A DNA stretch of 64,000 nt from NCBI GenBank assembly GCA_037138755.1, contig JBAXHT010000002.1, forward strand, positions 1 to 64,000, given 5' to 3'. A model generated the notes under the pieces. That model worked only from the letters and a program-made list of their open reading frames with translations, did not search any database and was not told where the DNA came from. Position numbers and translations under genes: made by a program. Numbering within the stretch: the stretch's first letter is position 1; the number at the start of each line of letters is the position of its first letter. The DNA is from Armatimonadota bacterium. Its GTDB lineage: Bacteria > Armatimonadota > Fimbriimonadia > Fimbriimonadales > Fimbriimonadaceae. This document shows positions 128-27,109 of the stretch, piece by piece.

Positions 128-1076
128 GACGACCGGGACAACCGGCACGACCGGAACGACAGGTACAACCGGAACAACGACAACCGGAGCAACCGGAACT
201 ACGACCGGTACCACCGGCACCACCGGTACGACGGGAACGACAGGCACAACCGGAACCACTGGAACTACCGGGACAACAGGCACTTCAGGAACGACCGGAT
301 CGACAACGACAACCGGAGGAGCGATGACAGGATCGACCGGGAACACGACTACCATCACCACCGACTCGCTTTATCGCTACATCACGGGCAACGGAATTCC
401 GGGGCACGTCACCGGGGCCTTCCCAAACCCGAACAACCCAAACTCAATCTCGGCGCAGAGCTACAACTGGCGATGCTTCAAATCCCCATCAGCGGCGGGT
501 AGCTACACGGCTGGTGGCCTCGGAAAGAAGGCTGGAACTGCTCGAAACAGCGTGCCGTTTGACCCTTACGCCAACGAGTGGTACCAGAATAACCCGGCGA
601 CAGGCTGGCAATACGAACCTAAAGGTGGAGGCGTCAATCTGGGCATCGACTCGAGCAATGCGCACGTCCAGCCTAATGGGGCATACCATTACCATGGGCT
701 GCCCATGGGGCTGCTCAACCTGTTGAGCTACACGACTCAGATGGCGATCGTCGGTTGGGCAGCAGACGGATTTCCGATCTACGGACCTTACTGTTACAGC
801 GTTGCAAACAACTCGTCGAGCGGACTGCGGCAGATGACCTCCAGCTTCCGGCTTAAATCCGGGACCCGGTCGGGCGGCCCGGGAGGAGTCTACGACGGCA
901 CATTCGAGCAAGACTGGGAGTACGTAGCGGGACTTGGTGACCTCGACCAGGCAAACGGGCGCACCGGCGTGACACCCGAATTTCCCGGCAGCACCTACTA
1001 CTATGTTCTCACCAATGCCTATCCCTATATTCCTCGCTACATGCGCGGTACGCCTGACCGTTCGTTTGGATACTGA
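1..1076 (+). CDS. YHYH-domain secreted protein with Thr/Gly repeat region (5' truncated)
   Basis: The reading frame is open from base 3 to the stop at 1074-1076, so the gene begins before the window; the first in-frame ATG (324) is probably not the start. About 107 visible N-terminal residues are nearly uninterrupted Gly-Thr-Thr triplets with occasional Ser or Ala, resembling the GXT collagen-like stalks of bacterial surface proteins. The following 250 residues carry YHYHG (codons at 684-698), a [13 protein letters not shown] stretch and a C-terminal region rich in Tyr and Gly, the hallmarks of the YHYH domain (PF14240). The function of that domain is not established; a surface or cell-wall location is inferred from the stalk. 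The next gene begins 3 bases after its stop, so the two are probably cotranscribed. Confidence 0.85.
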
Positions 1077-2156: not shown

Positions 2157-2579
2157 TCAGGGACGGGGCCAAAATGCGTCGGTCCAACGAGCTTCGTCGC
2201 CCTTTCGGTAGACCATCGCGCATCCGACCAAAAGTGCGATGAAGCCGAAAGCAGCAAGCAAAGCGCCTAGCGCCATAATCATTCTTCCAACCGATTCCGC
2301 AGTGTGCGCCGTGTCGAATTGCTGCCTTGCGGCCAAGAGGCTCGCTGGTTGTTTTGGCTTGACCAATGAGGCTGCACCAATCATCTTTGCCGACGAGATG
2401 ATAGCTAGCACCAACCCTGCGCCAGACATCAGCATTCCCAGAAGGAACGCCCAGAGACCCCATTTTCGGGTTCGATACCCATCCCGCCACCGTTTCGCAA
2501 GTTCGCAAATACAGATCGGCTCATCGGGGTTCACAAACGCCCCAATCTGCCCTCTGCATTGCGGACACCTCGGATTCAA
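2157..2579 (-). CDS. Zinc-ribbon membrane protein (array member 9)
   Basis: This 140-residue protein is the last gene of a nine-gene minus-strand array. It opens with CPQCRGQIG and a second, degenerate Cys pair CIC (C23, C25), an altered zinc ribbon, followed by two predicted membrane segments (about 42-64 and 100-124) that flank a 35-residue loop. There are 9 bases between it and the preceding gene. The function is unknown; the shared architecture with its eight upstream neighbours is the main clue. It converges on the HupE-like gene with only 12 bases between stops. Confidence 0.75.
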   Translation of the reverse strand: MNPRCPQCRGQIGAFVNPDEPICICELAKRWRDGYRTRKWGLWAFLLGMLMSGAGLVLAIISSAKMIGAASLVKPKQPASLLAARQQFDTAHTAESVGRMIMALGALLAAFGFIALLVGCAMVYRKGDEARWTDAFWPRP

Positions 2580-2588
2580 CGCTTCACC

Positions 2589-3113
2589 CTACCCCTTCCG
2601 AATGCTGCCCAACAGTATAAGTACGAGCGCCATAATCATCCCGTTACAACCCATGACGGCTCCGCCCAGCCACCAGAGATGCGCCGGATGAAAGCCCTCC
2701 GCGCAACTGCCAAAGCTCACAAGCGTCGCACCTATTAGCAGCGCTGTGCCGATCAACATTTGCCGAATTCCGTGCTGAGTTCGGCTCACGACTTCACCGC
2801 AGTGAGAGCAGTGGCGTCGACGACGTTCCACTCTTGCCCCACAATTGTCACACACAGAATAGTCCCCGTCGGCCCCTGGGAGAAACGCGTTCTTCGCGTC
2901 ACTCTGCTCAGCCCGGACCAGGGCAATCAGGCAACCAAACAGTCCCACCGCCCCTAGTGCCATAGACCAACCGGGCCAAGCTGACTTGCCGAATGCGTCA
3001 ATGAACTCCCAAAACTGACCTCGCCGGGAAGGACTCCAAAGAAGAAACGACAGAAATGTTCCGATCCCGATAAACGAGGAAATGACCATTCCCGCCCAAA
3101 GCCATTTCCTCAC
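2589..3113 (-). CDS. Zinc-ribbon membrane protein (array member 8, ribbon between two helix pairs)
   Basis: This 174-residue protein is the largest array member. Unlike the others, its ribbon lies in the middle: two hydrophobic segments (about 5-27 and 48-67), then CDNCGARVERRRRHCSHCG (about 87-105), then two more hydrophobic segments. It looks like a fusion of an extra helix pair to the standard ribbon-plus-two-helices unit. The start overlaps the stop of the upstream gene by 4 bases (3110-3113), indicating translational coupling. The function is unknown. Confidence 0.75.
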   Translation of the reverse strand: MRKWLWAGMVISSFIGIGTFLSFLLWSPSRRGQFWEFIDAFGKSAWPGWSMALGAVGLFGCLIALVRAEQSDAKNAFLPGADGDYSVCDNCGARVERRRRHCSHCGEVVSRTQHGIRQMLIGTALLIGATLVSFGSCAEGFHPAHLWWLGGAVMGCNGMIMALVLILLGSIRKG

Positions 3114-3406
3114 TTCCTATCGCCCCCGTCCCGTAAGAACGCCCAGTAGACAGCCCACAGCATCAAGCACGTGACGGCGATCCACAGCCAAAGTGACGCC
3201 AAGTACGGTGAGACGAAACGCCCAAGCGGATACCAAAGCACGCAGTATCCAAAACACATAAGAGGAGTGACCGACACGAGAAGGACGAGCCCGATAGTGT
3301 TCCGGGTGATCTTCCCCGGCTCCCAGCCGCACATTGGGCAGAATCTCGCACCAAGTTTCCAATCCGCACCGCACTTCCCGCACTGTTTAGGTTTATCTGG
3401 GCTCAC
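3110..3406 (-). CDS. Zinc-ribbon membrane protein (array member 7)
   Basis: This 98-residue protein has CGKCGADWKLGARFCPMCGW near the N-terminus (a CxxC-x11-CxxC ribbon) followed by two hydrophobic segments (about 38-60 and 68-89) and a short charged tail. The region between the helices (YPLGRFVSPY) resembles that of member 6 (GGPLAYVSPI), supporting common descent. It overlaps member 8 by 4 bases and is separated from member 6 by 46 bases. The function is unknown. Confidence 0.8.
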   Translation of the reverse strand: MSPDKPKQCGKCGADWKLGARFCPMCGWEPGKITRNTIGLVLLVSVTPLMCFGYCVLWYPLGRFVSPYLASLWLWIAVTCLMLWAVYWAFLRDGGDRK

Positions 3407-3452
3407 ATCACACGACCACTTTTTGCGACGCTGACACTTGCTTGCACAAGCA

Positions 3453-3746
3453 TCAGTCGCGCTTTTCTCCCGACGGCTGCATTACTTTCCAAACTACCCA
3501 AGCAAGCCACACCGCTAGGAGAATCCAGGGAAGCGGCTCGATAAAGATCGGAGACACATAGGCCAGAGGACCGCCGATGCAGCAGTAACCAATCGCCATA
3601 AACGGAAACACCGCCATCACGGCAAGGAACACCCCAAGTCCAGAGACTTGGTTGGCGACATCCCAGCCGCAGAATTCGCAGATCGTCCGTCCGGGATGCC
3701 AGCTTGCCCCGCACTTGGGGCATTCTGATGGTCGTGCCGAACTCAT
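3453..3746 (-). CDS. Zinc-ribbon membrane protein (array member 6)
   Basis: The 97-residue reading starts at the ATG at 3746, whose first base lies inside the upstream stop (ATGA overlap 3743-3746); the longer open frame to 4004 is an artefact. The N-terminus carries CPKCGASWHPGRTICEFCGW, then two hydrophobic segments with a GGPLAY motif between them. The same motif occurs in member 2. The function is unknown. Confidence 0.8.
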   Translation of the reverse strand: MSSARPSECPKCGASWHPGRTICEFCGWDVANQVSGLGVFLAVMAVFPFMAIGYCCIGGPLAYVSPIFIEPLPWILLAVWLAWVVWKVMQPSGEKRD

Positions 3747-4039
3747 GACCTCGACTTCCTTCGCCAATACTCTAACCCACCGATGATGCCGAGAAACACG
3801 AGAGCTCCGGGCCAGAACCACCACTGGGTGAATACCCAGTGCGCCGACCACGCAGAGAACCCTGTTAACCAGCAAGGTGCAAAGCACGCCAACGGACAGA
3901 CTGCCAGCGCTCCGAGCAGGAAGAAGATAGGAGCAACCGGGTCTTTTGAACTCCAGCCACAAACTGGGCAACAATTCGCCCTCATCTCGAGTCGAGCGTC
4001 GCACTTGGGGCAGGGCTTGAACTCAACCTCAATGCTCAT
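3743..4039 (-). CDS. Zinc-ribbon membrane protein (array member 5)
   Basis: This 98-residue protein starts at ATG 4039, which overlaps the upstream stop by 4 bases (4036-4039). It has CPKCDARLEMRANCCPVCGW near the N-terminus and a C-terminal Trp-rich hydrophobic half with two membrane segments, ending in a basic tail (YWRRKSRS). The basic tail suggests a cytoplasmic C-terminus by the positive-inside rule. The function is unknown. Confidence 0.8.
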   Translation of the reverse strand: MSIEVEFKPCPKCDARLEMRANCCPVCGWSSKDPVAPIFFLLGALAVCPLACFAPCWLTGFSAWSAHWVFTQWWFWPGALVFLGIIGGLEYWRRKSRS

Positions 4040-4374
4040 GGGTGATTTTTGAGGTCTAGGAACGCCGCGATAAAAACGAAGAACTGGAAAAGAATGAACA
4101 AGCCAACACCGGACCAAACCGCAATGAGAAACTCTTCGAGGTGTGCTGGTTGCTGACCGTAGCCCCACAGCATTCCAACTGGAGCGAAGCCGAACAGAAA
4201 GGCCCCCGCGTAAACAGCTCGAGTAATGCTAACCCTCATACGTACCTTCTGCTTTGCTTGGCGTGTGAGCGGGAGCTTGCACCGAGAGCAGACACCTTCC
4301 TCCTCGGGCAAAGCTATTTGACACCTCGGGCAGACGACCAGCGGATCAAAAATGCTCGACTCACTTCCCATCAT
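4036..4374 (-). CDS. Zinc-ribbon membrane protein (array member 4)
   Basis: This 112-residue reading starts at ATG 4374, which overlaps the end of the upstream gene by 14 bases; an upstream in-frame start at 4410 would overlap further and is less likely. It has CPRCQIALPEEEGVCSRCKL near residues 15-34, a basic linker, and two hydrophobic segments. It is less similar to its neighbours than they are to one another. The function is unknown. Confidence 0.75.
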   Translation of the reverse strand: MMGSESSIFDPLVVCPRCQIALPEEEGVCSRCKLPLTRQAKQKVRMRVSITRAVYAGAFLFGFAPVGMLWGYGQQPAHLEEFLIAVWSGVGLFILFQFFVFIAAFLDLKNHP

Positions 4375-4660
4375 CAAACCCCAATCCGATCCACCACTTG
4401 ACCGCGCCAACGATGCTGAGTGCGACGCCTGCCAACAGAAAGAGTGCGAATGTGTCTCCGGGGATCAACGAAGCCCCCATCGCCGTGCATCCGCCTCCGC
4501 AGGCCAGAAAAGCGGTGATCATCATCAAACACCCCTCCAGCCGCATCTTCTTCCCCTTCGCGATCATCTCGGGATTCCGCCAGCCGCAGTGAGCGCAGAA
4601 CTCCAAACCGTCACCGAGCGTTCGGCGACACTTTGGGCACGATCCACTTGTGTCCAGCAT
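4361..4660 (-). CDS. Zinc-ribbon membrane protein (array member 3, duplicate of member 2)
   Basis: This 99-residue protein starts at ATG 4660. CPKCRRTL and EFCAHCGWRNPEMIAKGKK are shared almost exactly with member 2 just upstream, and the DNA of that segment is also closely similar, pointing to a recent tandem duplication. The membrane halves have diverged much more than the ribbons. The spacing to member 2 is 7 bases. The function is unknown. Confidence 0.8.
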   Translation of the reverse strand: MLDTSGSCPKCRRTLGDGLEFCAHCGWRNPEMIAKGKKMRLEGCLMMITAFLACGGGCTAMGASLIPGDTFALFLLAGVALSIVGAVKWWIGLGFDDGK

Positions 4661-4667
4661 CTTTGAT

Positions 4668-4967
4668 TCAAGACCCCACAAAATAGCTGACTCCCTTGAG
4701 CCACTTGACAACTCCAATAAGCCCGAATCCGAACGCGCCACCAACCAGTGGATACCATGCCCAGTAGGCAAGCGGACCGCCTTCAAATGAGTAGCAACTC
4801 CCTCCGCAGCTGAGACAAGCAACCAACATCAAGACCAGTCCCTCCAGCCGCAACTTCTTCCCCTTAGCGATCATCTCAGGATTTCGCCAGCCGCAATGTG
4901 CGCAGAACTCTGCTCCCTCGGGAAGAGTCCGACGGCATTTCGGGCAAAATCCAAGTTCCAAGCTCAC
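4668..4967 (-). CDS. Zinc-ribbon membrane protein (array member 2)
   Basis: This 99-residue protein most likely starts at a GTG (4967) that forms a GTGA overlap with the stop of the first array gene; the longer open frame to 5048 lies within that gene. The ribbon (CPKCRRTL...EFCAHCGW) and the following basic linker are nearly identical to member 3. The inter-helix motif GGPLAY is shared with member 6. The function is unknown. Confidence 0.75.
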   Translation of the reverse strand: MSLELGFCPKCRRTLPEGAEFCAHCGWRNPEMIAKGKKLRLEGLVLMLVACLSCGGSCYSFEGGPLAYWAWYPLVGGAFGFGLIGVVKWLKGVSYFVGS

Positions 4968-5239
4968 TCGTCCCTCCGAAACCCTCCGCCGCGAGACTCC
5001 CACAAGCGGATGCACCCAAGCGCAACAAACACAATGACTAGCCACCAAGCGGTCGGTAAACCCTTTGCGAACAGAATGATGGCCGCTGTGATCGCGGCTA
5101 CGAGAAAGTTGATTGCAGCCATGGCAAGGCTTGTGTTTCGTTCATGCGTAACCACTCGGTATCCACACTGGAGGCAACTCTTGTCTTGCCGCAAAAGTTC
5201 CTTGCCGCAGTTTTCGCACCACCGCTGGTCTTTCCCCAC
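4964..5239 (-). CDS. Zinc-ribbon membrane protein (array member 1, promoter-proximal)
   Basis: This 91-residue protein begins at GTG 5239. It has CENCGKELL and CLQCGY (C8, C11, C22, C25), then two hydrophobic segments (about 37-60 and 63-80) and a charged C-terminus. A TAGAAT hexamer lies 6 bases upstream of the GTG and no Shine-Dalgarno sequence is present, so a leaderless transcript is likely. It is the first gene of the nine-gene array. The function is unknown; zinc ribbons of this kind can bind metal, nucleic acid or protein partners. Confidence 0.75.
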   Translation of the reverse strand: MGKDQRWCENCGKELLRQDKSCLQCGYRVVTHERNTSLAMAAINFLVAAITAAIILFAKGLPTAWWLVIVFVALGCIRLWESRGGGFRRDE

Positions 5240-5245
5240 ACCCCC

Positions 5246-5251
5246 ATTCTA
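5246..5251 (-). promoter_or_regulatory. -10-like hexamer of zinc-ribbon array
   Basis: TAGAAT on the minus strand ends 6 bases before the GTG at 5239, placing the expected transcription start at or beside the start codon. This is the same arrangement seen for many other genes in the window. Confidence 0.5.
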
Positions 5252-23232: not shown

Positions 23233-23976
23233 ATGACCATCGCGCTTTGCCAGATACCGATGGATCTGACCATAAGCGGAAATACCCGCCACATCACCGA
23301 AGCGATAGCTACCTCCGGTGCCGACTTGGCAATATTCCCCGAGTGCGCGCTGACGGGCTACAACTACGTAATGGGCGGAGACATTTCGCGGCCGAACCTC
23401 ACCACAGCGTTCTCCGCGATCAAAGATGCCTGCCAGCAATCCAGCACCGCCGCTATTCTCGGCGCGCCATGGTTCGCTCGCGACGACCATGAAAAGCCCT
23501 GGAACGCCGCCGTCGTGATCGACCGGCAAGGAGAAATCGTCTCCGTTCAGCCCAAGATCGTCTTCACGGACGACGAGATTCGTAACGACATCTTCCTGCC
23601 CGCCGACGTCGAAACCCGGACCGCATTTCGCCTTAACGGCAAAACCTGCGCGATTCTGATCTGTTCCGAGTTCGCCGGAGTCGTTGGAAGCTACACCAGC
23701 AGCCACTGCTACCGACTTCTCGAAGGACTGAATACCAAACTCGACATCGTATTCGTGATCGGAGTCATGGATATGAGCCCGAATTCAAAGGGCAGCCCGC
23801 TCTCGCAAGAAGCGGCTCGGTACTTTGATGCCGACTTCGTGATCGTCAACACTGCCGAATGGGGCTTTGGAACCCCGAGCGGCAACCTCGGGGGAAGCAA
23901 GGTTGTTTCAAGGAGTGGCGAATTGCTTGTTCAAGCCCCATTTGATCAGACGGCAATTACGCTGATCACTCTTTAG
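23233..23976 (+). CDS. Carbon-nitrogen hydrolase (nitrilase superfamily)
   Basis: This 247-residue protein has the Glu-Lys-Cys catalytic triad of the family: E37 in FPECALTGY, K108 in QPKIVFTDDE and C144 in ILICSE. Members hydrolyse amides or nitriles, or transfer acyl groups; the substrate cannot be read from sequence. It is not an Lnt homologue, as it has no membrane region. CATAAT at 23218-23223 lies 9 bases before the ATG. Its 3' end overlaps the convergent next gene by 11 bases. Confidence 0.85.
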   Translation: MTIALCQIPMDLTISGNTRHITEAIATSGADLAIFPECALTGYNYVMGGDISRPNLTTAFSAIKDACQQSSTAAILGAPWFARDDHEKPWNAAVVIDRQGEIVSVQPKIVFTDDEIRNDIFLPADVETRTAFRLNGKTCAILICSEFAGVVGSYTSSHCYRLLEGLNTKLDIVFVIGVMDMSPNSKGSPLSQEAARYFDADFVIVNTAEWGFGTPSGNLGGSKVVSRSGELLVQAPFDQTAITLITL

Positions 23977-25591
23977 GCTTCTTGGTCGTGTACCAATCGG
24001 ACCTATCCGCCAAGTTTGTCCAACTCATGGGGAGGTCTAACCGGTCTTTTAGAATGATGATCTTGACTCCGTCCGAGAAGCTAGTGGAGCTACCGACCCG
24101 ATACTTCTTCTCCTTCAGCTTGTACGAGTCAACCATCCCGTTTCGGAACTGCTCGAACTTCGTGTAATTCAAGGTCAAGATATCTTCCTGGATCGTCCAC
24201 GTTCCGCTTCCCTTCTGCCCACCAAACTGGGCGGCACTTCCGTAGCTACTCGAGGCACCTCCGTAAGTGAACGTAAACGTGCCGTCCGCTTTCAAGTTGA
24301 GGGTTCCGCCGTAGGACGTGTAACTCGTTGAGCTTGCTCCAGAATAAACGTTGACGTAGTCCATACTTGCATACGAGCCGTAGCCGAACTCGCCCACGAG
24401 AGAAGACTTGTCGAACAGAGGCTTGCCCTTGGTCGCGTCGCACTTGATCGTCGCCAAATACTCCTCAAGATAGGCCACGGTCGTGTTCAAGGAAAATCGA
24501 GCGGACATTTCCACTCCAACCCGAAAGTCGCCCGTTTCCTCGTATGTCTGTGCCATCACGATTGGCTGCCAATGAGATTCGCAATCCACAAGCATGAGAG
24601 TGAAGATTGAATCTGCTTCGCGCCCTTTTTCGCGCCCTGCTCCAACAATGAAATATGCAGGAACTCCGGACCCGACATACCGCCGGTAAATAATCCCGCC
24701 ATTCTTTCCGGCGAGCTCTTGGGGAACGTACTTGGCCCACAGGTCACTAAGGATTTGGCCAACGCTGACTCCGGGCGTCACCGCAGGCAGCAAACGGGCG
24801 AGCCCGGAAGTGAGCCGGGTTCCATCAGCCACCGTCTTGACCATCCAAACATCCTTTTGGGTCCAACCAGTCGGTAAGCCAGAACCGAAGTTGGAAGCAA
24901 TCCCGGTTGCCGTTTTGATGGGAGCGGCTTCAGCTGGCGTCTTTTGAACAGGAAGTTTAACGGCTTTCACCTCAAAGCTCTTGGCTGAATAGTTCACTGA
25001 ATCGACCGAGGCACCCGTTACCAGAGTGAACAACAGTCCGGCGACTTGCCTGAACTGCGCTTTCTGCTCGTCATCTTTCACAGCCGCAAGTAGCGATCCC
25101 GAAATCGCGTAGAGAGCAACCACCTTTTCTCCCGCAAGTTCCTTGTCTGCGTCGGACATATCTCTAACAGAAGTGCTATCGAGCAACCTTTGGATTCCGC
25201 CGATCGTGGCGATGAAGGCATCGTCGGCAAGCTCGACATTCTTCGCCGTTGTATACAGTCCGAGCAAACCGAGGGCAATATTTGCCGAGGCATCGCCCTC
25301 GAACGGAGTCGCAACAAATCCCTTTTCCAGGCCCTCAACAACTGCCAGGGCCGATTCTCGAAAGGCTTTCCGCTCTTCGTCGGTCGATGCTAGTTCGGTA
25401 ACCGCCGCCTCAACCCCTTTGCGGTTCCTCGTTGGCTTGTACTTTGTTGGGCTTGACGAAACGACGCCACCAGACTTGAAACCGCTCGTGTTTAGACCTC
25501 TAAGTGCATCCAGGATCGGATTCCCTGCCAATGCTGTCGAACCGAATGCAAGCATCACAAGGCACCCTAGGAGAGAGATTTTGCCCTTCAT
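23966..25591 (-). CDS. Secreted lipocalin-like/DUF6683-like protein
   Basis: Starting at ATG 25591, the 541-residue protein has a signal peptide (about 1-22, ending ALAG), an N-terminal helical region (about 45-190) that weakly resembles DUF6683, a middle domain (about 235-395), and a Gly/Ser/Tyr-rich beta C-terminus (about 410-530) with LNLKADGTFTFTYGG, as in lipocalin-like lipid-binding folds. The longer frame to 25642 is unlikely: TATTCT lies exactly 7 bases before ATG 25591. The domain calls are tentative and the function unknown. Confidence 0.65.
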   Translation of the reverse strand: MKGKISLLGCLVMLAFGSTALAGNPILDALRGLNTSGFKSGGVVSSSPTKYKPTRNRKGVEAAVTELASTDEERKAFRESALAVVEGLEKGFVATPFEGDASANIALGLLGLYTTAKNVELADDAFIATIGGIQRLLDSTSVRDMSDADKELAGEKVVALYAISGSLLAAVKDDEQKAQFRQVAGLLFTLVTGASVDSVNYSAKSFEVKAVKLPVQKTPAEAAPIKTATGIASNFGSGLPTGWTQKDVWMVKTVADGTRLTSGLARLLPAVTPGVSVGQILSDLWAKYVPQELAGKNGGIIYRRYVGSGVPAYFIVGAGREKGREADSIFTLMLVDCESHWQPIVMAQTYEETGDFRVGVEMSARFSLNTTVAYLEEYLATIKCDATKGKPLFDKSSLVGEFGYGSYASMDYVNVYSGASSTSYTSYGGTLNLKADGTFTFTYGGASSSYGSAAQFGGQKGSGTWTIQEDILTLNYTKFEQFRNGMVDSYKLKEKKYRVGSSTSFSDGVKIIILKDRLDLPMSWTNLADRSDWYTTKKPKE

Positions 25592-25598
25592 CAAATCC

Positions 25599-25604
25599 AG
25601 AATA
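25599..25604 (-). promoter_or_regulatory. -10-like TATTCT of the lipocalin-like gene
   Basis: TATTCT on the minus strand is followed by 7 bases and then ATG 25591, which supports both a leaderless transcript and the chosen start. Confidence 0.45.
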
Positions 25605-25647
25605 GCCGATTCGCTTCCCGATTCTGACGGCGGCGAATTCAATGTGC

Positions 25648-25653
25648 CATAAT
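25648..25653 (+). promoter_or_regulatory. -10-like CATAAT of rplS
   Basis: CATAAT predicts a transcript start near 25660 and a leader of about 115 bases before rplS, unlike the leaderless genes. The leader contains two hairpins. Confidence 0.45.
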
Positions 25654-25704
25654 ATAGTTTCCGTCTAAGCGTGGAACTTCTGTCGCGCCTCTTGACGTTA
25701 ACAC

Positions 25705-25747
25705 TGCCAGGTTCACTGAACTTGGCATCGTCCCGAGTCTTCGGGAC
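25705..25747 (+). promoter_or_regulatory. Tandem hairpins in the rplS leader
   Basis: Hairpin 1 (25705-25727) has a 10-bp stem with one G-U pair and a 3-base loop. Hairpin 2 (25730-25747) is GTCCCGA/TCGGGAC with a 4-base loop. They lie 28 bases or more before the ATG with no strong Shine-Dalgarno, so they may form an L19 autoregulatory leader. Known L19 leaders exist in other phyla; homology to them was not tested. Confidence 0.45.
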
Positions 25748-25774
25748 AAAACGGATACAGAAGTAAAACAGAAC

Positions 25775-26125
25775 ATGTCAAAACAAGCAATTTTGGAGAG
25801 CGTGGTCGCGCCTAACATCAAGACCGACGTTCCAGACATCTGGCCTGGTGACACCGTTAAGGTTCACGTTAAGGTCCGCGAAGGAAACAAAGAGCGAATC
25901 CAGCTTTTTGAAGGAACCTGCATCGCCGTCAAGCACGGTGGAATCGCTAAGACCATCACACTCCGCAAGATCACCAGCGGCGTCGGAGTCGAGCGAACCT
26001 TTCCCATCCACTCGCCAAACGTCGCCCGATTTGAAGTCACTCGTCGCGGTAAGGTTCGCCGAGCCAAGCTTTACTACCTTCGAGGCAAGGTCGGTAAGGA
26101 AGCCCGAATCAAAGAGCGACGATAA
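25775..26125 (+). CDS. rplS: Ribosomal protein L19
   Basis: This 116-residue protein of the large ribosomal subunit lies near the 30S-50S interface. It has typical L19 sequence: FRPGDTV-like [41 protein letters not shown] and the C-terminal [20 protein letters not shown]. The length is normal for the family. It is followed after 3 bases by the signal peptidase gene, a common arrangement in bacteria. Confidence 0.97.
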
Positions 26126-26128
26126 TCG

Positions 26129-27109
26129 ATGCCGTCGTCAACGCTTGAATATGTGGACATGGTTGCGCGGACTCCGCTCAGCCAAATCCTTGTCTTCTCA
26201 GTGTCTCTGACGGCAATTCGAATCGTATCCCACTTCGTATCCGCTAAAACCCCAAAGCATAAACAGGGCTTCGGGGTTAAGTTCTTAAGTGGCATCAGCG
26301 ATCTGTTCGATTCGTTGATCTACGCAGCCGTGTTCATCTTCATGGTGATCCGGCCCTACTTCTTCCAGACCTTCCAGATTCCGACCGGATCTTTGAACCC
26401 GACATTGAAAGTGGGAGACTTTATCGGCCTGAACAAGGCCATCTACCGATATTCCGAGCCAAAACGCGGGGACATCGTCGTTTTTCACCCCCCGGCCTAC
26501 GCCTGCTCGCCCGAGCAGCTTCGACCGAACGGGGACCCGAAGGTCGACTTCGTGAAGCGCCTCATCGGTCTGCCCGGAGACGTGATCGAGATGAAGAACG
26601 GCGTGATCTACGTCAATGGCAAACTGCTTTGGGAACCCTATTGGCACTTTGCCGAACAGACCAGCCAGGGCGATTTCCGGCTGTTTTCCCAAGCCGAGAC
26701 GGCGGCTTTTCAAAAGCAGAGTTGGAAACTTGTCAACTACAAAGGCAAGCTGATCCCGCTGAACTACACCCAGTATGATGCCAACGCGGCCTCGCCGCGG
26801 TCGGAGAATTTTGGTCGGCAACCCTACTACGCCGCCGAGCCGTTCATCATCCGTGATCCCGCCGAGGCAAGCTCGCCGGAAGTGCGAAATCTTCCCGCGC
26901 AAAAGATTCCCGAAGGCAAGTTCCTATTCATGGGCGACAACCGCAACAACTCGTTCGACGGACGCGGATGGGGTCTCATTGACCGAGACAACATCATCGG
27001 CCGCGCCGAGTTCGTCTGGCTTCCCATGAACCGCTTTGGCGGCATCCGGTACGTCGACAATGGTTCGCCAAAGGCTCCAGACGCGATTGTTGCCGAAGGG
27101 ATGCGATAG
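26129..27109 (+). CDS. lepB: Signal peptidase I
   Basis: This 326-residue membrane protease removes signal peptides from exported proteins. The catalytic serine is S88 in IPTGSLNPTL and the general-base lysine is K143 in FVKRLIGLPGD; the GDNRNNSFDGRGWG box E is near 270. The residue after the catalytic Ser is Leu instead of the usual Met. An N-terminal hydrophobic segment (about 17-38) and a second (about 62-80) anchor the protein. It is likely cotranscribed with rplS. Confidence 0.94.
   Translation: MPSSTLEYVDMVARTPLSQILVFSVSLTAIRIVSHFVSAKTPKHKQGFGVKFLSGISDLFDSLIYAAVFIFMVIRPYFFQTFQIPTGSLNPTLKVGDFIGLNKAIYRYSEPKRGDIVVFHPPAYACSPEQLRPNGDPKVDFVKRLIGLPGDVIEMKNGVIYVNGKLLWEPYWHFAEQTSQGDFRLFSQAETAAFQKQSWKLVNYKGKLIPLNYTQYDANAASPRSENFGRQPYYAAEPFIIRDPAEASSPEVRNLPAQKIPEGKFLFMGDNRNNSFDGRGWGLIDRDNIIGRAEFVWLPMNRFGGIRYVDNGSPKAPDAIVAEGMR

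What the first reader, a model, noticed from the sequence alone, without database searches (positions are those of the whole stretch)
2157..5239. Array of nine small zinc-ribbon membrane proteins in one operon
Seen: nine consecutive minus-strand genes, each encoding a CxxC...CxxC ribbon with two to four membrane segments, most overlapping by 4 bases (ATGA or GTGA) and headed by a leaderless-type promoter. Members 2 and 3 are nearly identical in the ribbon and its flank; GGPLAY recurs in members 2 and 6. Inference: repeated tandem duplication with retained ribbons and diverging membrane halves suggests a membrane complex or a set of interchangeable sensors. I know of no described system with this layout.
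Basis: partly seen in the sequence, partly recalled or inferred. Interest (0 to 1): 0.78.

Follow-up and report, generated by a model that had tools for sequence, protein, structure and literature searches.

The report
Tandem ribbon-hairpin genes, radical-SAM operon family
Nine small neighbouring genes encode tiny membrane proteins with a zinc-binding knob; most belong to an undescribed protein family that elsewhere in the phylum Armatimonadota sits, in variable copy number, inside an operon with a radical enzyme of the lipid-joining type and a lipid-transfer-enzyme look-alike, so the array is probably an expanded offshoot of a membrane-modification system.

Summary
The array is real: nine same-strand genes (5239 to 2157), coding by codon usage, eight with a clean CxxC...CxxC ribbon plus a two-helix hairpin (W9 is degenerate). 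Only 4 of 8 junctions are 4-base overlaps. Clear tandem duplication holds for W2/W3 and W6/W7 only, and W2/W3 is old (silent sites saturated). The layout is not unique. A profile built only from proteins of OTHER genomes picks W2-W8 as the best seven matches in this genome. Those proteins come from an apparently undescribed operon: a Tes/TrsS-like radical SAM enzyme, an Lgt paralogue, 1-8 ribbon-hairpin genes, and a small membrane protein. The enzyme is in 25 of 291 genomes of the phylum, and carriers of strong ribbon-hairpin hits largely coincide with it (20 of 24). The window's genome has this operon on another contig; the array is an orphan expansion of its ribbon-hairpin family. The two nearest relatives lack the enzyme: one has a single array gene at the same site, the other none. 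Best guess: inner-membrane accessories or substrates (cytosolic ribbon; hairpin with conserved G-x-C near the outer face) of a lipid- or membrane-modifying pathway. Function remains inferred.

The parts
4964..5239 (-). W1: ribbon + two-helix protein, 91 aa, GTG start; has a single-copy orthologue at the same place in G001
5246..5251 (-). TAGAAT, -10-like element 6 bases before the W1 start (leaderless-type); also present before the G001 orthologue (7 bases before its start)
   Evidence: and sequence
4668..4967 (-). W2: ribbon-hairpin protein, 99 aa (GGPLAY; CGGSC motif); 4-base overlap with W1
4361..4660 (-). W3: ribbon-hairpin protein, 99 aa; paralogue of W2 (ribbon half 83%, membrane half 38% identical)
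4036..4374 (-). W4: ribbon-hairpin protein, 112 aa, without the G-x-C motif
3743..4039 (-). W5: ribbon-hairpin protein, 98 aa
3453..3746 (-). W6: ribbon-hairpin protein, 97 aa (GGPLAY; GYC); AlphaFold model gives ribbon plus helices 31-61 and 71-89
3110..3406 (-). W7: ribbon-hairpin protein, 98 aa; closest partner is W6
2589..3113 (-). W8: 174 aa, extra N-terminal membrane segments, then ribbon-hairpin with GSC motif
2157..2579 (-). W9: 140 aa, TTG start, degenerate ribbon (C-x2-C, C-x-C) and two membrane segments; not recognised by the family profile

Best explanation
The array is an orphan, expanded set of an undescribed 'ribbon-hairpin' family: cytosolic zinc ribbon, then a two-helix membrane hairpin with a P-x4-G-x-C motif near the outer end of helix 1, both ends inside. 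The family's home is an Armatimonadota operon of a Tes/TrsS-type radical SAM enzyme, an Lgt-family paralogue, 1-8 ribbon-hairpin genes and a small membrane protein. That operon is also present, apart from the array, in the window's own genome. Shown: gene content, homology of W2-W8, operon linkage in other genomes, repeated copy-number change. Inferred: the operon makes or attaches an unusual membrane lipid, with the ribbon-hairpin proteins as membrane-embedded partners (scaffolds that hold enzyme and lipid together, or lipid-carrying substrates), and the nine window copies serve the same pathway or a paralogous use of it. I put about 0.8 on the family and operon assignment, 0.4 on an accessory role in lipid modification, and 0.15 on the hairpins being lipidated substrates.
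For: Leave-window-out profile (20 ribbon-hairpin proteins of other genomes): the best 7 matches in the whole genome are W3, W2, W5, W8, W6, W4, W7 (3.7e-9 to 1.1e-7), ahead of the genome's own operon pair (1.9e-7, 2.8e-7); the best unrelated ribbon protein scores 9.3e-6. The reverse search (window proteins only) finds mainly operon members as best hits elsewhere (mapped). Operon: nearly every tes-like locus with enough downstream sequence has hairpin genes by lgt, mostly with a ribbon, and in the flanks of up to 10 kb no other qualifying ribbon-membrane ORF appears. The enzyme is in 25 of 291 genomes; 20 of the 24 genomes with the strongest ribbon-hairpin hits carry it (Fisher 1e-22, not corrected for relatedness). 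Own operon at G000:C3:424-428 kb. Radical SAM: best solved match is the archaeal tetraether synthase 7TOL, 1.5e-31; best NCBIfam models TrsS and Tes. Lgt paralogue: PF01790; a second, better-scoring Lgt exists in the genome. G-x-C in 47 of 70 proteins against 12.6 in shuffles, maximum 22. K/R density 0.19 before helix 1, 0.02 in the loop, 0.23 in the tail, i.e. ribbon inside. Array-specific duplication: best partner in the same array for 35 of 61, shuffles mean 3.2.
Against: The window array is not next to the tes-like operon but between an acyl-CoA dehydrogenase gene and a HupE-like gene. Family members also occur in genomes without the enzyme (G001's W1 orthologue; G004, G036, G159). Much of the profile signal is in the ribbon: membrane halves alone match only weakly (W6 2e-4; others down to about 0.1, overlapping weak decoys). 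W1 alone does not beat generic ribbon proteins and W9 does not match. The radical SAM protein is far below the NCBIfam cut-offs for TrsS and Tes. The Lgt paralogue has L, C, C where the E. coli enzyme has H103, N146, E151 (alignment; numbering from memory), so its chemistry may not be Lgt chemistry. No expression or lipid data.
Confidence: 0.5

Rival explanations
1. The array is a functionally independent set: generic small zinc-ribbon membrane proteins, duplicated locally and used as adaptors or metal/redox sensors, related to the operon family only by descent.
For: Genomically separate from the operon; family members persist in genomes without the radical SAM gene; the nearby relative G001 keeps one copy without the operon; ribbons carry most of the similarity.
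Against: W2-W8 match the operon family better than other ribbon proteins of the genome and better than the operon's own members; strong family hits co-occur with the radical SAM gene (20 of 24 genomes); the two nearest relatives lack both the enzyme and the expanded array.
Confidence: 0.3
2. The hairpin proteins are the dedicated substrates of the operon: the Lgt paralogue lipidates the conserved cysteine (an internal, uncleaved lipobox-like G-[GAST]-C at the outer end of helix 1) and the radical SAM enzyme modifies the attached acyl chains.
For: G-x-C in 47 of 70 proteins, residue -1 being G, A, S or T in 35 of 47; N-in topology places this cysteine near the outer face, where a lipoprotein cysteine lies; an Lgt paralogue in almost every such operon; variable copy number suits substrates.
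Against: W1, W4, W5 and W9 lack G-x-C and W6/W7 have G-Y-C; the Lgt paralogue lacks three catalytic-site residues of E. coli Lgt; no signal-peptidase-like cleavage or diacylglyceryl evidence.
Confidence: 0.15
3. A defence or immunity-type array: fast-diverging small membrane proteins kept for protection against phage or toxins.
For: Tandem multiplication, fast protein divergence (W1 47% against 92% for the neighbouring dehydrogenase in G001), gain or loss between close relatives.
Against: No match to any PADLOC model; no toxin or phage gene seen next to the array; the home operon is biosynthetic in character.
Confidence: 0.05

Closest known systems
Pfam zinc-ribbon domains (DZR PF12773, Zn_Ribbon_1 PF13240)
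   Same: The N-terminal CxxC...CxxC ribbon; W2 passes both cut-offs
   Different: These models cover only the ribbon; no Pfam or NCBIfam model covers the hairpin half, and eight of nine proteins fall below the cut-offs
Tes / Mss membrane-spanning-lipid synthases (PMC8941075, PMC9433317, PMC13274423) and NCBIfam TrsS
   Same: The operon's radical SAM protein aligns with Tes (7TOL, 1.5e-31) and with the TrsS and Tes models, including the C-terminal CCxH...FC stretch
   Different: Scores 217 (TrsS) and 159 (Tes) bits against cut-offs of 490 and 450, so a separate subfamily; partners (Lgt paralogue, ribbon-hairpin array, small membrane protein) not found in the papers searched; it is not in the window itself
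Prolipoprotein diacylglyceryl transferase Lgt (PF01790)
   Same: Operon paralogue has the fold family and keeps the GR...G and FRxxVEFFR-type positions
   Different: H103, N146 and E151 positions are L, C, C; a second, higher-scoring Lgt exists in the same genome

Membership tests
Ribbon-hairpin family of the tes-like operon | Matches a profile built without window proteins better than other ribbon proteins of the genome | tested here: met
   W2-W8 ranked 1-7; W1 (2.0e-5) ranks below two generic ribbon proteins; W9 not found
Ribbon-hairpin family of the tes-like operon | Membrane half recognisable on its own | tested here: inconclusive
   W6 2e-4, others weaker, overlapping weak decoys
Ribbon-hairpin family of the tes-like operon | G-x-C motif near the outer end of helix 1 | tested here: inconclusive
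   G-x-C in W2, W3, W6, W7, W8; absent in W1, W4, W5, W9
Ribbon-hairpin family of the tes-like operon | Encoded beside a Tes/TrsS-like radical SAM gene and an Lgt paralogue | tested here: not met
   no tes-like, lgt-like or small-protein homologue in the window; the operon lies on contig C3. Membership claimed is therefore of the protein family, not of the operon
Tes / TrsS radical SAM enzymes (operon gene in C3, not window) | Score above the curated NCBIfam cut-off | tested here: not met
   217 against 490 (TrsS), 159 against 450 (Tes), measured on the G002 protein
Canonical Lgt (operon gene in C3, not window) | Catalytic-site residues H103, N146, E151, R143, R239 of E. coli Lgt | tested here: not met
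   alignment: H, N, E replaced by L, C, C; the two arginines kept; residue numbers from memory
Known anti-phage defence systems | Match to a PADLOC model | tested here: not met
   no match for any of the nine

The most novel reading that the evidence does not exclude
A new membrane-modification system: a Tes-like radical SAM enzyme and a rewired Lgt paralogue act on a multiplying set of dedicated two-helix proteins that carry an internal lipobox-like cysteine and a cytosolic zinc ribbon, giving protein-anchored, possibly membrane-spanning lipids; the window holds a nine-member detached substrate array.
Probability: 0.12. Interest if true: 0.88.

Novelty: new variant of a known kind. Interest (0 to 1): 0.6.

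Why it matters
Bacterial membrane-spanning lipids are widely used as climate proxies, and their producers and helper proteins are still being sought. It gives named genes for a direct test in an Armatimonadota isolate or a heterologous host.

Tried and rejected
Recent tandem expansion in this species: rejected for W2/W3 (silent sites saturated, pS 0.74; the neighbouring dehydrogenase has dS 1.0 against G001). Artefact ORFs: rejected by codon scores and by purifying selection in the W2/W3 ribbon half. Assembly artefact: made unlikely by the W1 orthologue between the same two flanking genes in G001. Defence system: no PADLOC match. Structural analogues: Foldseek on the W6 model gave only ribbon-sized matches, none with E below 0.9. 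Named Pfam/NCBIfam family for the hairpin: none. Published description: searches for Armatimonadetes with tetraether and radical SAM, and for zinc-ribbon arrays in Armatimonadota, returned nothing. A separate CQFC-type ribbon pair with three to four membrane segments found on the way is a different family.

Full report
What is there. The window is the start of contig C2 of a 3.27 Mb genome. Its phylum, Armatimonadota, is inferred from the names of related records. Nine minus-strand genes run from 5239 to 2157. Own-frame codon scores exceed all other frames for eight; W5 is a near-tie. Spacings are -4, +7, -14, -4, -4, +46, -4, +9. W1-W8 have a CxxC-x10-CxxC ribbon; W9's is degenerate. Pfam sees only ribbons and NCBIfam nothing solid. 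K and R are dense before helix 1 and in the tail and nearly absent from the loop, so ribbon and tail should face the cytosol. An AlphaFold model of W6 (mean pLDDT 79, pTM 0.41) shows a small ribbon, a long helix 31-61 and a helix 71-89.

Age and origin. W2 and W3 share 83% of the ribbon half, but silent sites there are saturated (pS 0.74, pN 0.12), so the similarity is kept by selection. In G001, whose dehydrogenase protein is 92% identical (dS 1.0), the same site between the dehydrogenase and the HupE-like gene holds exactly one gene, an orthologue of W1 (47% identical) with a TAGAAT at nearly the same distance from the start. In G016 the sequence upstream of the dehydrogenase has neither array nor HupE. 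Because W2/W3 look at least as old as the split from G001, loss in G001 and G016, or arrival of the genes from elsewhere, is more likely than nine-fold duplication since the split; these cannot be told apart here.

Relatives. Searching 61 genomes with the nine window proteins gave clusters of similar genes in other genomes. Their flanks share three genes: a radical SAM protein, an Lgt-family protein and a small membrane protein. The radical SAM protein (G002 copy) matches NCBIfam TrsS (217 bits) and Tes (159 bits), both far below cut-off; the G000 copy matches the solved archaeal tetraether synthase at 1.5e-31. The Lgt-family protein passes PF01790, but the G000 copy has L, C, C at the positions aligned with E. 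coli H103, N146 and E151, and the genome has another, higher-scoring Lgt. The radical SAM gene occurs in 25 of 291 genomes of the phylum at E below 1e-100. A scan of GTDB-wide contigs found it mainly in Fimbriimonadales and Abditibacteriaceae records, plus one UBP7 and one Planctomycetales bin. In loci with enough downstream sequence 1 to 8 ribbon-hairpin genes lie on the same strand by lgt, and no other qualifying ribbon-membrane ORF appears in the flanks. In L176, L177 and L179 the hairpin occurs without a ribbon, and ribbon-less hairpins also lie beside ribbon versions in L129 and L170. The hairpin therefore looks like the core module and the ribbon an addition. The own-genome copy lies at C3:424-428 kb.

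Link between window array and operon family. With window proteins left out, the family profile ranks W3, W2, W5, W8, W6, W4, W7 first to seventh in the whole genome, above the two operon members. Of 24 genomes with the strongest ribbon-hairpin matches, 20 carry the radical SAM gene (Fisher 1e-22). The genomes are related, so this number overstates the strength, and the threshold of about 1.5e-11 was set after seeing the list. Membrane halves alone give weak support, so the link rests on ribbon plus hairpin together. The window array is not beside the operon, which is the main weakness.

Copy-number dynamics. Of 61 ribbon-hairpin proteins in multi-copy loci, 35 have their best partner in the same array against 3.2 expected (maximum 11 in 1000 shuffles), so arrays multiply within lineages or are homogenised. 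In one genome (L051/L170) two copies share the ribbon even at silent sites (dS 0.25) while the membrane halves differ (dS 1.08), as after conversion or exchange of the ribbon half. In the window only W2/W3 and W6/W7 are mutual best partners.

Mechanism. Tes joins lipid tails (PMC8941075, PMC9433317) and bacterial Mss relatives are held to make membrane-spanning lipids (PMC13274423); Lgt transfers a diacylglyceryl group to a lipoprotein cysteine (general knowledge). An operon with a Tes/TrsS-type enzyme and an Lgt paralogue therefore suggests lipid or lipoprotein modification. The ribbon-hairpin proteins could hold the enzymes at the membrane (ribbon as protein-binding knob) or be lipidated at the conserved G-x-C cysteine, which resembles a lipobox (47 of 70 proteins; residue -1 small in 35 of 47). 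Both are inferences. The substrate reading is weakened by missing motifs in W1, W4, W5 and W9 and by the altered active site of the Lgt paralogue.

Verdict. The array is best described as an orphan expansion of an undescribed ribbon-hairpin family whose home is an apparently unreported radical SAM/Lgt-paralogue operon of Armatimonadota.

Noticed in passing
G000:C3:424000-428000 (L129): The window genome's own copy of the tes-like / lgt-like operon, with two ribbon-hairpin genes, two hairpin genes without ribbon and the small membrane protein, close to a contig end.
   Followed up: yes
L170:2463-4910 (same operon as L051): Several ribbon-less hairpin genes followed by three ribbon-hairpin genes; two copies share the ribbon half even at silent sites while the membrane halves differ, as after ribbon exchange.
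   Followed up: partly
L177 (UBP7) and L179 (Planctomycetales bin): The operon has a proline-rich protein with the same hairpin motif in place of the ribbon-hairpin protein.
   Followed up: partly
G001:C20, G002:C6:1178-1179 kb, G006:C1:1375 kb, G008:C1:23-24 kb: A conserved pair of adjacent ribbon proteins (CQFC type) with three to four membrane segments, a different family.
   Followed up: no
window 1080-27109 compared with L041: Gene order differs from G001: there the HupE-like gene adjoins signal peptidase, L19 and a 542-aa gene that match window genes near 23966-27109, so this region is rearranged.
   Followed up: partly
window 324-1076: YHYH-domain protein (PF14240, 5.7e-63) just upstream of the HupE-like gene.
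   Followed up: no
L129:9935-10375: ORF made almost entirely of V-V-P repeats at the end of contig C3, next to the radical SAM gene.
   Followed up: no
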